NCBI GenBank assembly: GCA_002707525.1
Contig: PAND01000016.1
Location: 1 to 32,924 of the forward strand
Direction: 5' to 3'
DNA from: Flavobacteriales bacterium
Lineage (GTDB): Bacteria > Bacteroidota > Bacteroidia > Flavobacteriales > Schleiferiaceae
Length of the DNA stretch: 32,924 nt
In this document: positions 20,261-24,780 of the stretch, piece after piece
How positions within the stretch are numbered: position 1 is the first letter of the stretch
Layout of the letters: each line of letters begins with the position of its first letter
Position numbers and translations under genes: made by a program
The notes under the pieces: generated by a model
Databases searched by the model: none
What the model was told of the DNA's origin: nothing
The model's input: the letters and a program-made list of their open reading frames with translations, nothing else

Positions 20261-21034
20261 ATGAAAGGCGTTCAAAAGATAGGGTTGTTTGATAGTGGAC
20301 TTGGCGGTCTCACGGTGTTGAGCGCGTTGAATAAAGTCCTTCCTGGTGTGCCAAAAGTCTATTATGGAGACACGCTCCATCTTCCATATGGTGATAAGAG
20401 CGATAGAGCCATTCAAGGTTATAGTATAAAAATTGTCCAATTCCTTAAAGACCAAGGTTGTGACCTTATCGTGATTGCCTGCAATAGTGCGAGCGCCTCT
20501 GCAGGGAAAGAGCTTGAAAGTCGTTTTCCTGAATTGACATTTATCAATGTCATTGACCCCGTTGTGGACTATTTGGCTCAACTAGGAATAAATAGAGTAG
20601 GCCTTCTAGGCACGCGCGCTACAGTTCGAAGTGAAGCCTATTCATTGAAGCTCGCACAAAAGAATAGCGAAGTTGCACTCTATGCATTGGCGACTCCATT
20701 ATTGGTGCCACTCATAGAGGATGGTTTTTTAGGAACAGGGATTGATTCAGATGTTCTGGCTCATTATCTAAATGATTCAACATTGGACGGTATTCAAGCT
20801 CTAGTTCCAGGATGCACACACTACCCATTATTAAAAAAAACTGCTACAGCCATATTAAAAGAAGTTCTTTGGATTGATGCTCCAAACATTGTAGCAGAAG
20901 AGGTAGCAAAGCATTGGAATAGCAATGAAATTGCTGAAGACACATTCTACCTGAGTGATCGTACAGACAATTTTTTAACCATGGCTAAGAAAACATTTCA
21001 AATAGATGCTTACTGGGAATTGGTTCGCTTATAG
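20261..21034 (+). CDS. murI: Glutamate racemase
   Basis: 257 residues. It makes D-glutamate for peptidoglycan. GLFDSGLGGLTVL (8-20) with D11/S12, YYGDTLHLPYGDKS (35-48), the first catalytic cysteine in ACNSASA (C74) and the second in PGCTHYPLL (C185, H187) are all present. Length is close to the norm. It lies just after the terminator at 20199-20233; the 27-nt leader shows no clear -7 box. Confidence 0.95.
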   Translation: MKGVQKIGLFDSGLGGLTVLSALNKVLPGVPKVYYGDTLHLPYGDKSDRAIQGYSIKIVQFLKDQGCDLIVIACNSASASAGKELESRFPELTFINVIDPVVDYLAQLGINRVGLLGTRATVRSEAYSLKLAQKNSEVALYALATPLLVPLIEDGFLGTGIDSDVLAHYLNDSTLDGIQALVPGCTHYPLLKKTATAILKEVLWIDAPNIVAEEVAKHWNSNEIAEDTFYLSDRTDNFLTMAKKTFQIDAYWELVRL

Positions 21035-21088: not shown

Positions 21089-22432
21089 ATGCCATCACAA
21101 CCGCCGCAAACCACCGCTCCTACTATTGAAGACATATGGAAGTATCTAGAAGCTGTAGACGCGGAAGAACTACTAAGTAGTCTTGATTTTCCTTTGGTAC
21201 CTCAGGGATCCTATTCTCGTCTACCGCTCCTCACAGAGCCATTTGAAGTAACTGCAATTAAATGGCCCTCTTACTCTAAAAGTGCAATACATAAACACGA
21301 CGGTTTTTTTGGAGCGGTTCGCGTACTTTCTGGAAAAATAATCAATCGTGCATACAGACATGAATTACATGTGTTAAAGGAGATTGAGGTTACCGAATTT
21401 ACCACTGGTGGAATTGTAGAAGAGCCTGACGGTACCATACATTTATTGGAGAACCCATTAAAAACCCCTAGTATTAGTTTACATGTTTATTATCCTACAA
21501 TAACATCCTTTGAAGACATGCGGCTGTATAATATTGAGGAAAGGGCCATTGGCGTTTTGGGAAGCGGAGCTCAAGGCGCCTCATGGAAGAGTGAAGTTTC
21601 TGGCCATTTTAAGCGAATTCAAGAAAACGCATTTAAGTATTCTGGTATAGGAGAAACGGATAGTCATTATATCAGCCCGATTGTACCAAAACCCGCTAAA
21701 AATGAAATACTTGACGAATTGAGCGGCTATTACAACGAGCAAGCAAAAGTGTATGATGGGAATGACTTGAATATTAAATGGAGAAAAGACTATACTGAAG
21801 GAGTAAATAGAATCATTGCCGTGGAGCTCATGAAGCTTGACATTCAAGATTACATGGCATTGTGCTGTGGTACTGGCAGAAGACCAATAGAAATTCGAGA
21901 TTTGACCGGTAAGAATTTTGAAATTTATGGAGTTGATATTAGTGAAAAGATGATTCAAGAAAGTAATGCACGGGGACTAAGGACAAAGCTCGGTGACATT
22001 ACAAGTTTAGAGTTTGACTTTGATCAAAACTACGATTGTATTACTTACCTCTATGCCTTTGGTCATCTTACGTGCCGCAGCGATCGAGTTGAAGTATTAA
22101 AAAAATGCAAGAGCCACTTAAATTCTGGCGGCGTATTTTTTGCAGACTTATTCTGCGTTAGAAATGTCTTTGAATGGGGAGATGAAATTCAGCGAATTCA
22201 TGCGAAGTATAGGTTGGAGGAACAAGGATACGAGCCCGGAGATGTTTTCTATAAAAGATCAGAAGGCGAGCATCGAGCATTTCTTCATTATTTCACTCGC
22301 GAGGAAATAGTCGATTTATTCCAAGAGGCTGGTTTTGAGCATATAGAGATTCATAAAATCGGATACACACAACGGTCGGGACAACTTCACGACACCTCAG
22401 ATGAGGGTATGTATTGGGTAAAAGCTTGCTGA
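21089..22432 (+). CDS. Cysteine dioxygenase-like cupin fused to a SAM methyltransferase
   Basis: 447 residues in two domains. Residues about 15-140 are a thiol-dioxygenase cupin: YSR with R44 (the equivalent of the Arg that binds cysteine's carboxylate), HKH (H68, H70) in AIHKHDGFFGAVRVLSGKI, Gly75 where mammals have the crosslinking Cys, EPDGTIHLLEN (third iron ligand H118), and SLHVYYP (S130, H132, Y134), the cysteine dioxygenase Ser-His-Tyr set. Residues about 205-447 are a class I methyltransferase: ALCCGTGRRP (257-266, a Gly of the usual DxGCGTG lost to Cys), acidic YGVDIS (D283) and LGDITSLEF (D303). Likely substrate is cysteine or another small thiol, and the methyl acceptor is unknown. 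Cytosolic, no signal peptide. I do not recognise this architecture as a named enzyme. Confidence 0.85.
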   Translation: MPSQPPQTTAPTIEDIWKYLEAVDAEELLSSLDFPLVPQGSYSRLPLLTEPFEVTAIKWPSYSKSAIHKHDGFFGAVRVLSGKIINRAYRHELHVLKEIEVTEFTTGGIVEEPDGTIHLLENPLKTPSISLHVYYPTITSFEDMRLYNIEERAIGVLGSGAQGASWKSEVSGHFKRIQENAFKYSGIGETDSHYISPIVPKPAKNEILDELSGYYNEQAKVYDGNDLNIKWRKDYTEGVNRIIAVELMKLDIQDYMALCCGTGRRPIEIRDLTGKNFEIYGVDISEKMIQESNARGLRTKLGDITSLEFDFDQNYDCITYLYAFGHLTCRSDRVEVLKKCKSHLNSGGVFFADLFCVRNVFEWGDEIQRIHAKYRLEEQGYEPGDVFYKRSEGEHRAFLHYFTREEIVDLFQEAGFEHIEIHKIGYTQRSGQLHDTSDEGMYWVKAC

Positions 22433-22433
22433 A

Positions 22434-22787
22434 TTAACGGGCATTCCCCCAACGGTACATCCAAGAACTAATTGTTGAAATTAAGAAGCTAAATAGAATT
22501 GCTGTCCAAGTACTTTTAACGTGCAGTCCATCAAGCCATTGATCAGCAATACCAATAATTATCGCATTGATAATCAGAAGAAATAAACCTAAACTGAAGA
22601 TGGTGATGGGAATAGTAACTAGGATTAACAGCGGTTTCAGTGTTGAATTAAGTAAGCCTAAAACCAAGGCAATACCAATGGCTGAGGTAAAGCTGTCAAT
22701 TTGAACCCCAGGCAGTAACCAGCCGGCTACAAAGACAGACAACGAAGAAATGATCAAACGCGTTACGAGGCTTTTATTTTGTTTCAT
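22434..22787 (-). CDS. Phage-holin-family small membrane protein
   Basis: 117 residues from the ATG at 22787 (MKQNKSLVTRL); the open frame extends upstream to 22886 but that part overlaps the aminopeptidase gene and lacks conservation. Four hydrophobic segments (about 10-24, 35-48, 50-78 and 93-110). The pattern SLSVFVAGWLLPGVQIDSF and GLLNSTLKPLLILVTIPI belongs to the family labelled phage holin family (superfamily IV), a chromosomal membrane protein whose role is unknown; nothing phage-like is nearby. It ends 1 nt from the stop of the dioxygenase-methyltransferase gene on the other strand. Confidence 0.85.
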   Translation of the reverse strand: MKQNKSLVTRLIISSLSVFVAGWLLPGVQIDSFTSAIGIALVLGLLNSTLKPLLILVTIPITIFSLGLFLLIINAIIIGIADQWLDGLHVKSTWTAILFSFLISTISSWMYRWGNAR

Positions 22788-22821
22788 TTGAGGTAACTTG
22801 GTTGCATTAGAACTATTGAAA

Positions 22822-24780
22822 ATGAAAGTACGTTTTTCCTTCCTTACATCTTTAATGCTAGTGCTAATATTCTCAGCATGTAGCAATGAAGAAATTCCTC
22901 AAAAGTCAACCCCTTCTCTATCAGGTAAAGTGGTTGAACTAGCAGATACTTCTGTTCGAGCCGAGCTCTTTGAAGATCCCCATAGTTATTCACGAGAAAA
23001 TGCTAAAGTGACCCATTTGAATTGGGAGGCATTTATAGATTTTGACACTAAGATTATTTCAGCTACTGCAGAATGGGTATTGTCTACTGAGCATTCGGAT
23101 ACCGTAGTATTTGACGTGAAAGATTTAGAAATTGAAAAGGTTTTAGTTGACGGTGAGTCTTCAGTTTGGTCCTTAGAAGGAAATGATGAATTGTTGGGTT
23201 CTGCCTTGGTAGTTCCCGCGGGAGGTGCACAGATAATTGGTATTCAGTACAAAACATCACCAGAGGCTGAAGCGCTGCAATGGTATCCCGCGGAATTGAC
23301 TCAAGGAAAAAGACAACCCTTTTTGTTTACGCAGAGTCAAGCAATATTGGCGCGTACTTGGATTCCTTGTCAAGATAGGCCGGGTGTGAGATTTACCTAT
23401 GATGCAACAGTACAAGTTCCAAAGGAAACGTTAGCGCTTATGAGTGCATCAAATCCCACTCAGAGGAATGAACAAGGAATCTATGAATTTAGTATGCCTC
23501 AACCTATTCCGTCTTATCTGTTGGCACTTGGAGTAGGTGATCTAGCATTTATTCCAATAGGTGAGCGTTCTGGAGTTTATGCAGAGCCAGAAATGGTACG
23601 AAATGCCGCCTATGAATTTGCGCAAACGGAGGAGATGATAAATGATGCTGAAGAAATGTACGGTCCCTATTATTGGGGCAGGTACGATATGCTTGTTCTT
23701 CCTCCTTCATTCCCATTTGGAGGAATGGAAAACCCCAGATTAACCTTTTTAACACCCACTGTCATTGTTGGTGATCAGAGTTTAGTAAGTCTTATTGCAC
23801 ACGAATTGGCGCACAGTTGGAGTGGCAATTTAGTTACCAATGCTACTTGGAACGACTTCTGGATCAATGAGGGGTTTACGGTATACTTTGAAATGCGAAT
23901 CATGGAAAAGTTATATGGTGTAGAATTCGCGAACATGCTAGAGGCTTTGAGTTATGATGACCTGCAGAAAGAACTCGCGGTCATGCTGGAAGATAATGTA
24001 GAAGCCACAAGCTTGAAACAAGATTTAAAAGGTAAAAACCCGGACGATGGTGTTACGGCAATTGCCTACGATAAAGGCTTTCATTTCTTAAGATTGTGTG
24101 AGAATACGGTGGGACGCAACAAGTGGGACAAATTTCTGAAGTCGTACTTTGATAAGTACAAGTTTAAAACTATGGTTACTGAGGTATTCTTGCAAGAATT
24201 AGCAGGGGTGCTTTCTCAAGGCCAATGGGACAGCATAGGTGTTGAGCAGTGGGTTTACGGCACAGGATTGCCGCTGAACTGTCCTTTTCCAATATCTAAT
24301 CGATTTGTTGTAGTGGACAATGCGGTTAGAATGATGCTTTCCGCAGATCCTGAAGCAGAGGATGTGCAATCTATGGTTTACTTGCCGCAAGAAACTACCA
24401 TTCGTTGGACTACTCAAGAATGGTTGAGATATATAAGAGGGTTAGAAGATGGAGAGGCTACAGAAGGACATTATGCGCTCGCAGATGGTAATTACGGATT
24501 TAGCGAAAGTCCTAATCCTGAAATCATTGCAGCATGGTATTCAGCAATATTGAAAACGGGCTTTGAAGGCTATGATTCATCTGTTTATACTGAAAAAGTA
24601 GAGCGCTTTTTAGGAAGTGTTGGTCGCAGGAAATTCATAGTACCTATGTATCAAAGCATGCTTCAGGGTGATATGAAAAGAAAAGAGTGGGCAAAGAAAA
24701 TTTATATGGATTCCCGTGCATCTTATCATCCTTTAGCGCAGGGAACACTGGATGATCTTTTTTCTGAGACTATGGAATAA
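22822..24780 (+). CDS. M1 family aminopeptidase lipoprotein (leukotriene A4 hydrolase-like)
   Basis: 652 residues from the ATG at 22822; the TTG-start reading from 22798 is rejected because the shorter form opens with a proper lipoprotein signal, MKVRFSFLTSLMLVLIFSAC, with Cys20. The M1 exopeptidase loop GGMEN (300-304), zinc site HELAH (H327, E328, H331) and the third ligand E350 in NEGFTVYFE are intact. The C-terminal helical domain matches the leukotriene A4 hydrolase-type C-terminus. It trims N-terminal residues from peptides in the periplasm or at the cell surface. Its 3' end overlaps the convergent AsmA-like gene by 11 bp. Confidence 0.92.
   Translation: MKVRFSFLTSLMLVLIFSACSNEEIPQKSTPSLSGKVVELADTSVRAELFEDPHSYSRENAKVTHLNWEAFIDFDTKIISATAEWVLSTEHSDTVVFDVKDLEIEKVLVDGESSVWSLEGNDELLGSALVVPAGGAQIIGIQYKTSPEAEALQWYPAELTQGKRQPFLFTQSQAILARTWIPCQDRPGVRFTYDATVQVPKETLALMSASNPTQRNEQGIYEFSMPQPIPSYLLALGVGDLAFIPIGERSGVYAEPEMVRNAAYEFAQTEEMINDAEEMYGPYYWGRYDMLVLPPSFPFGGMENPRLTFLTPTVIVGDQSLVSLIAHELAHSWSGNLVTNATWNDFWINEGFTVYFEMRIMEKLYGVEFANMLEALSYDDLQKELAVMLEDNVEATSLKQDLKGKNPDDGVTAIAYDKGFHFLRLCENTVGRNKWDKFLKSYFDKYKFKTMVTEVFLQELAGVLSQGQWDSIGVEQWVYGTGLPLNCPFPISNRFVVVDNAVRMMLSADPEAEDVQSMVYLPQETTIRWTTQEWLRYIRGLEDGEATEGHYALADGNYGFSESPNPEIIAAWYSAILKTGFEGYDSSVYTEKVERFLGSVGRRKFIVPMYQSMLQGDMKRKEWAKKIYMDSRASYHPLAQGTLDDLFSETME

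What the first reader, a model, noticed from the sequence alone, without database searches (positions are those of the whole stretch)
21089..22432. Cysteine dioxygenase-type cupin fused to a SAM methyltransferase: candidate new thiol-modifying enzyme
Seen: the N-terminal domain keeps the three iron ligands (H68, H70, H118), the carboxylate-binding Arg (R44), the Ser-His-Tyr set (S130, H132, Y134) and bacterial Gly75 in place of the crosslinking Cys, so it reads as an active thiol dioxygenase. The C-terminal domain keeps a SAM motif (CCGTGR) and D283. Known: cysteine dioxygenase makes cysteine sulfinate, precursor of hypotaurine, taurine and sulfonate metabolites. Inference: the fused methyltransferase may methylate the sulfinate, or a product made from it, channelled within one protein, giving an N-, O- or S-methylated sulfur metabolite such as an osmolyte or lipid head-group precursor. 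The gene has no pathway neighbours.
Basis: partly seen in the sequence, partly recalled or inferred. Interest (0 to 1): 0.72.

Follow-up and report, generated by a model that had tools for sequence, protein, structure and literature searches.

The report
Cysteine dioxygenase fused to a methyltransferase
Some uncultured Bacteroidota carry a rare single-gene enzyme that joins a cysteine-oxidising domain to a methyl-transferring domain, an architecture that seems to have arisen twice and whose product is still unknown.

Summary
The 447-aa ORF at 21089-22432 is a two-domain protein with all cited residues in place: an Arg-type cysteine dioxygenase (CDO) domain, then a class I SAM methyltransferase (MT). 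Eight genomes carry it, 36-95% identical to each other. Both domains are under purifying selection and AlphaFold2 folds the chain well (pTM 0.83). It is a single-gene presence/absence trait: in 17 genus relatives the flanking murI and holin-like genes lie 5-53 bp apart. I saw no repeated pathway neighbours. A second CDO-MT fusion family exists in another order; trees reject one clade for both (p-AU 3e-5 CDO, 0.017 MT), so the pairing probably arose twice. I favour cysteine to cysteine sulfinate, then N-methylation, since the best MT hit with a named reaction is glycine/sarcosine N-methyltransferase; the acceptor is inference. Literature searches showed no description. A new variant of known domains, with its chemistry open.

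The parts
21089..22432 (+). CDO-MT fusion gene, 447 aa
   Evidence: eight genomes carry it
21089..21538 (+). Arg-type thiol (cysteine) dioxygenase cupin domain, aa 1-150
   Evidence: phmmer to 3eqe/4qm8 2e-8; Foldseek 4qm9_A rank 1, TM 0.79 by target length
21218..21220 (+). R44, predicted carboxylate-binding Arg
   Evidence: 7 of 7 full CDO rows; role from PMC8050391 passages
21290..21298 (+). H68-x-H70, predicted iron ligands
21440..21442 (+). H118, predicted third iron ligand
21476..21490 (+). S130-x-H132-x-Y134, the Ser-His-Tyr set
   Evidence: H132 and Y134 7 of 7, position 130 Ser 3 / Thr 4
21539..21703 (+). linker, aa 151-205, predicted beta strands and PKP motif; 10 of 54 scored columns invariant
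21704..22429 (+). class I SAM-dependent methyltransferase domain, aa 206-447
21863..21883 (+). SAM motif I CCGTGRR, aa 259-265
   Evidence: G261-R265 8 of 8 rows
20261..21034 (+). Asp/Glu racemase family gene (read as murI), left border of the insertion site
   Evidence: Pfam; empty sites
22434..22886 (-). Phage_holin_4_2 family membrane protein, right border of the insertion site
   Evidence: Pfam; empty sites

Best explanation
A bifunctional enzyme in one chain. Step 1 (well supported by family): the N-terminal Fe(II) cupin binds a small alpha-amino thiol, most likely L-cysteine, through thiolate, amine and the R44-carboxylate contact, and adds O2 to give the sulfinate, cysteine sulfinic acid. 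Step 2 (inferred): the C-terminal SAM methyltransferase methylates that product, most likely on its amino group (one to three times), giving N-methylated cysteine sulfinate, a zwitterionic sulfur metabolite. Fusion would keep the sulfinate from other enzymes. The gene works alone, as a single-gene trait that some relatives have and others lack.
For: CDO active site complete and Arg-type, 7 of 7 full rows; nearest solved fold the Cys-bound Bacillus enzyme 4qm9. MT profile: among PDB hits with a named reaction the best is glycine/sarcosine N-methyltransferase (1.5e-10), with phosphoethanolamine N-MT at 2.3e-8; 1wzn and 1y8c rank higher but are named only as methyltransferases. Foldseek of the MT model puts GSMT entries at ranks 2, 3, 8, 10, 12 and 39 of the 50 shown. 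Ortholog L026 matches the NCBIfam GlySarMtaseBact model at 7.5e-7, though far below its cut-off. Purifying selection on both domains. A second fusion of the same two domain types, not one clade with this one, argues that the two reactions belong together.
Against: No substrate was tested. The MT resemblance is fold-level (GSMT rows 18-20% identity) and the same lists hold C-methyltransferases (PsmD, SeMT) and DhpI, which I recall as an O-MT, and the window protein's best NCBIfam hits are UbiE/MenG models. In the printed alignment the RNYD stretch of GSMT, whose Arg I recall as the carboxylate binder of glycine N-MTs, has its Arg opposite F355, so that contact is not conserved. At the 24 MT positions compared, the two fusion types share little beyond the GTG motif and D283, so they need not do the same thing. 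A close group of standalone CDOs and two members of the second fusion clade lack an MT, so the MT is dispensable for some relatives.
Confidence: 0.35

Rival explanations
1. Sulfinate S- (or O-) methylation: the MT alkylates the freshly made sulfinate, giving S-methylcysteine sulfone (or a sulfinate ester) from cysteine and SAM in one protein.
For: Sulfinates are good soft nucleophiles (chemical knowledge). It would explain well why an MT is fused to this oxygenase in particular, probably twice.
Against: I know of no enzyme family that does this; a search for six phrases naming it or its product found 0 papers. The MT's nearest structures with a named reaction are N-MTs.
Confidence: 0.13
2. Methylation first: the MT N-methylates cysteine (or another amino thiol) and the CDO then oxidises the methylated thiol.
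For: Same residues and same fold evidence as the best explanation; order cannot be read from sequence.
Against: Mammalian CDO binds cysteine to iron through thiolate and neutral amine (PMC8050391 passages), which N-methylation would disturb.
Confidence: 0.12
3. The CDO substrate is another thiol (homocysteine, a dipeptide, an N-terminal Cys) and the MT acts on its product or on a different molecule.
For: The MT has no equivalog match: the NCBIfam hits of the window protein and of L026 all lie far below their cut-offs. The CDO scores below the Pfam cut-off in the window protein.
Against: R44, the contact to a free alpha-carboxylate, is kept in 7 of 7 rows.
Confidence: 0.2
4. The domains are joined only for co-expression or regulation (for example a thiol/O2-responsive cupin setting MT activity) and share no metabolite.
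For: No channel could be tested; some relatives manage with the CDO alone.
Against: The predicted iron ligands and the Ser/Thr-His-Tyr set are kept, and a linker with invariant residues joins the domains down to about 37% identity.
Confidence: 0.1

Closest known systems
Bacterial Arg-type cysteine dioxygenase, Bacillus subtilis YubC (PDB 3eqe, 4qm8, 4qm9)
   Same: Fold; in the printed alignment the three His, the Arg, the Gly at position 75 and the Ser-His-Tyr set line up
   Different: The solved chains are 171-173 aa, a single domain, with no linker and no methyltransferase
Glycine/sarcosine N-methyltransferase, Methanohalophilus (PDB 5gwx, 5h02, 5hij)
   Same: Best hit with a named reaction by profile and among the best by fold
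   Different: About 20% identity; its RNYD stretch is not kept; not fused to an oxygenase
Second CDO-MT fusion family found here (L039/L075-L080, 543-594 aa)
   Same: Same order of domains, three His ligands and Arg kept in 6 of 6, class I MT
   Different: About 60 aa more between the CDO Tyr and the GTG motif; not one clade with the window protein in either domain; 2 of 6 lie beside thioredoxin, Sulf_transp, DUF6691 and porin genes
CDO / cysteine sulfinate decarboxylase fusions of algae and CDO-CSAD operons of cyanobacteria (recalled; searches did not show them)
   Same: A CDO joined to the enzyme that uses its product
   Different: The partner there is a PLP decarboxylase making hypotaurine, not a methyltransferase
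OvoA / EgtB-EgtD sulfur enzymes (recalled)
   Same: Iron-dependent sulfur oxidation linked to SAM methylation of an amino acid derivative
   Different: Another fold for the oxygenase (recalled); the OvoA C-terminal model matches ortholog L026 only weakly, 23.1 against a cut-off of 170 bits

Membership tests
Cysteine dioxygenase type I (PF05995) | Passes the curated profile cut-off | tested here: inconclusive
   Window protein 19.8 bits, cut-off 23; orthologs L024, L026, L027 pass with 38.5-42.4
Cysteine dioxygenase type I (PF05995) | Three-His iron site | tested here: met
   H68, H70, H118 in 7 of 7 rows
Cysteine dioxygenase type I (PF05995) | Arg-type carboxylate contact (cysteine rather than 3-mercaptopropionate) | tested here: met
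   R44 in 7 of 7 rows; rule from PMC8050391 passages
Cysteine dioxygenase type I (PF05995) | CDO fold | tested here: met
   Foldseek rank 1 is 4qm9_A, E 1.1e-12, TM 0.79 by target length, on a model of pLDDT 87.6
Cysteine dioxygenase type I (PF05995) | Turns L-cysteine into cysteine sulfinate | not testable with these tools
   needs purified protein
Class I SAM-dependent methyltransferase | Rossmann-like fold and GxG SAM motif | tested here: met
   Methyltransf_25 46.4 bits, cut-off 27; G261-T-G263 8 of 8, D/E283 8 of 8; MT-only model pLDDT 90.8
Glycine/sarcosine N-methyltransferase | Passes the family's curated cut-off | tested here: not met
   Ortholog L026 29 bits, cut-off 350; the family is not among the 17 listed for the window protein at E up to 1
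Glycine/sarcosine N-methyltransferase | Arg of the RNYD stretch | tested here: not met
   opposite F355 in the printed alignment; the role of that Arg is recalled

The most novel reading that the evidence does not exclude
The protein is a one-polypeptide route from cysteine to a methylated sulfinate metabolite that no described pathway makes: in the boldest form a sulfinate S-methyltransferase producing S-methylcysteine sulfone, in the milder form the first dedicated cysteine sulfinate N-methyltransferase. Nature would have arrived at the same pairing twice in Bacteroidota.
Probability: 0.4. Interest if true: 0.75.

Novelty: new variant of a known kind. Interest (0 to 1): 0.5.

Why it matters
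Cysteine oxidation to sulfinate is an entry to taurine and other sulfonates (general knowledge). An enzyme that methylates a sulfinate, or its amino group, would add a branch to that chemistry and could make a zwitterionic solute. That the same two domain types were probably joined at least twice makes a shared purpose likely and gives two separate proteins with which to test it. The assay is simple: one soluble protein, cheap substrates and mass spectrometry.

Tried and rejected
Rejected: frameshift or assembly chimera (eight separate assemblies; shared flanks in the genus). Rejected: a Gln-type (3-mercaptopropionate) dioxygenase, since R44 is kept. Rejected, with reserve: one ancestral fusion for all CDO-MT proteins. 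The reserves: treekit printed long-branch cautions for both trees; the group was named after the proteins were seen; the MT result (p 0.0165) is the weaker and its comparison rows are only the MTs that earlier searches returned; and in the CDO tree the window type is not resolved as a clade apart from the standalone CDOs L040 and L089-L094, so loss of an MT in those is not excluded. Rows dropped before the trees: L034 (same score as L033) and, from the CDO tree, L023 (CDO end missing). No sign of a plasmid or viral carrier: plasmids and phages gave no match at 1e-5 (no positive control run), viral contigs none confirmed; of the 50 viral folds listed most are methyltransferases or capping enzymes by name, one is a cupin and one a CDO, none is named as both.

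Led nowhere: plasmid tblastn with the second-type protein, a standalone CDO and the window's CDO part (no match); a cysteine sulfinate decarboxylase in the own genome (the one Pyridoxal_deC match, L097, is nearest to tyrosine decarboxylase MfnA at 153 bits against a cut-off of 299); the HvrF lead (listing only); the nucleocidin paper, where a dioxygenase-like Orf(-3) and the methyltransferases are separate proteins (PMC10946740, passages); taurine and N-methyltaurine searches (listings and abstract starts only).

Not possible: measuring the distance between the two active sites; searching genomes of other phyla, beyond the one genome-contig scan, whose two peptide patterns would miss divergent fusions.

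Full report
What is there. The ORF at 21089-22432 (+) codes for 447 aa. Residues 11-148 match the Bacillus subtilis cysteine dioxygenase structures 3eqe and 4qm8 at about 2e-8 by phmmer, and a profile of eight orthologs matches them at 1.9e-18. Residues 258-348 are a SAM methyltransferase domain (Methyltransf_25, 6.6e-12). Against Pfam CDO_I the window protein itself scores just under the gathering cut-off (19.8 against 23 bits), while the three orthologs scanned pass it (38.5, 41.4 and 42.4 bits). AlphaFold2 with the eight-row alignment gives pLDDT 87.6 and pTM 0.83 for the whole chain. Foldseek then puts the Cys-bound Bacillus CDO first, with a mix of methyltransferases behind it. The tool gives no coordinates, so whether the two sites face each other remains open.

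Where else it occurs. One scan of genome contigs (84,980 species) with two peptide patterns found 99 stretches, of which 7 loci encode a relative. Three are 82, 86 and 54% identical (the last cut at its 5' end); by identity and contig they are the genomes G003, G012 and G024 of the window's genus. With the window that is 8 genomes; L025 and L027 are 94% identical. Genome searches: 4 of 25 genomes of the genus, the window's included. Of 395 genomes of the order, 12 matched at 1e-20: 5 are the fusion, 6 a CDO alone and 1 a methyltransferase alone. Of 395 genomes drawn from the phylum only the window's own matched at 1e-20. So the architecture is rare and patchy. Genus genomes are 58-100% complete, so some absences may be gaps; among those at least 90% complete and little contaminated it is 2 of 11.

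Genetic setting. In the genus the gene sits between an Asp/Glu racemase family gene (read as murI) and a Phage_holin_4_2 protein followed by an M1 peptidase (families). Of the 21 of 25 genus genomes with a murI match, three (G000, G003, G012) have the fusion between murI and the holin-like gene. Seventeen have the two genes 5-53 bp apart, measured between alignment ends, with no fusion match, and one (L053) has murI followed by the peptidase without a holin-like match and without the fusion. The fourth carrier, G024, had no murI match but by reading has the holin-like gene and the peptidase on the other side. The gene is therefore a single-gene presence/absence trait. Whether it was gained in some or lost in others was not decided. 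G+C is ordinary (40.4% against 41.1% for the window). In the other four carriers (L024-L027) the flanks differ from those of the genus; L025 and L027 share flanks with each other; apart from that I saw no repeated neighbour, reading the starts of the ORFs. In L026 a PALP/CBS-domain enzyme, which I would read as a cystathionine beta-synthase, lies about 3.7 kb upstream; one case, which I treat as coincidence.

Selection. Against L022 and L021, dN/dS is 0.071 and 0.087 over the whole gene, 0.085 and 0.121 in the CDO part (aa 1-150), 0.135 and 0.134 in the linker and 0.050 and 0.060 in the methyltransferase (dS is 0.9-1.5, so the ratios are rough). Across eight rows, 30 of 111 scored CDO columns (aa 40-150), 10 of 54 linker columns and 52 of 241 MT columns are invariant. 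Neither domain is decaying.

The active sites. In the seven rows that cover the whole CDO domain, Y42, R44, H68, H70, G75, H118, H132 and Y134 are invariant and position 130 is Ser (3) or Thr (4). The Arg at this place marks Arg-type enzymes; Gln-type enzymes such as 3-mercaptopropionate dioxygenase use an Arg elsewhere (PMC8050391, passages). The MT keeps G261-T-G-R-R265 in 8 of 8 rows and an acid at 283 in 8 of 8; the acid usual at 257 is kept in only 2 of 8. Other invariant MT residues include R232, Y235, Y322, G325, H326, D353, N359, E362, W363, Y388 and H400, none of which I can tie to a known acceptor.

Which methyltransferase. With the MT-only alignment, the best PDB sequence hits with a named reaction are glycine/sarcosine N-MT (1.5e-10) and phosphoethanolamine N-MT (2.3e-8). 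1wzn and 1y8c rank above, and HvrF and others lie between, without a reaction in their names. With the MT-only model (pLDDT 90.8) Foldseek ranks 1y8c first, then GSMT entries at 2 and 3; the 50 rows shown also hold TylM1, CypM, CcbJ, CalS10 and ToxA, most of which I recall as N-MTs, and the C-MTs PsmD and SeMT and the O-MT (recalled) DhpI. This leans to N-methylation without proving it. The protein is not a glycine N-MT by the tests made: the curated model's cut-off is not met and the RNYD stretch is not kept.

A second fusion. A Pfam CDO_I search of 395 phylum genomes gave 9 with a match, two of them in long frames: the window's (463) and L039 (566), which reads as CDO plus MT, 551 aa. Of 248 genomes of that genome's order, 9 matched at 1e-20, 6 as full fusions and 3 as CDO alone. 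In a tree of 29 CDO domains the window type groups with standalone CDOs of another family of its order (95/93), the second type with other standalone CDOs (100/98). Holding all fusions together is rejected for the CDO (p-AU 3.3e-5) and, less strongly, for the MT (p-AU 0.0165, 29 rows). Both trees carry long-branch warnings, the test was made after the groups were seen, and the window type is not resolved apart from its standalone neighbours. So CDO and SAM-MT were probably joined at least twice. At column 75 the second type reads Trp or Tyr in the alignment, with a Gly one place on. Thioredoxin, a Sulf_transp protein, a DUF6691 protein and a porin lie next to the gene in 4 of the 9 loci examined, two fusions (L075, L077) and two CDO-alone (L072, L073); they were not found in the other five, one of which (L076) begins near a contig end (families from L039/L075). 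None of them was found near the window type in the loci compared. That ties the second type, not the first, to sulfur transport.

How it most likely works. Shown: two intact-looking domains in one conserved chain. From family knowledge: Fe(II), O2 and cysteine give cysteine sulfinate. Inferred: SAM-dependent methylation of that product, most likely at nitrogen. I give the full chain 0.35, and methylation of the sulfinate at any atom 0.48 (0.35 + 0.13); the novel case is set at 0.4 because such a product might already be described somewhere I could not see. The other rivals (methylation first, another thiol, mere co-regulation) are listed with what would refute them.

Literature. Searches for the fusion (listings and abstract starts: 25 of 496, 11 of 12 and 1 of 1 papers listed) and for sulfinate methylation by name (0 papers) showed no description; the library holds only openly licensed papers, so this is not proof of absence. 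N,N,N-trimethyltaurine is treated with taurine as an osmolyte in the abstract start of PMC5762795; I saw no enzyme for it.

Noticed in passing
L039 1351-3006; L075 5055-6710; L076-L080: A second family of CDO-MT fusions (543-594 aa) in another order of the class, not one clade with the window protein.
   Followed up: partly
L072 4804-8544, L073 4766-8447, L075 1929-6710, L077 4141-9493: A repeated cluster: CDO or CDO-MT, thioredoxin, Sulf_transp protein, DUF6691 protein and Porin_O_P, which suggests a sulfur uptake and thiol oxidation unit.
   Followed up: partly
L089-L094 (e.g. L090 4821-5402): Standalone CDO-like proteins of about 191-212 aa, in 6 of 6 loci between the same two genes by reading; L094 has Gln in place of the carboxylate Arg and Val in place of the Gly.
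   Followed up: partly
L033, L035, L036, L037: Standalone Bacteroidota CDOs with Cys at the column of the window's Gly75, the place of the mammalian crosslinking Cys (4 of 4).
   Followed up: no
window 22434-22886 and 22798-24780: Listed with TTG starts, the holin-like gene and the M1 peptidase overlap on opposite strands; in L022 both frames start later and do not overlap.
   Followed up: no
L097 1240-2499: The window's genome has one Pyridoxal_deC match, nearest to MfnA but far below its cut-off; its substrate is open and could in principle be a sulfinate amino acid.
   Followed up: partly
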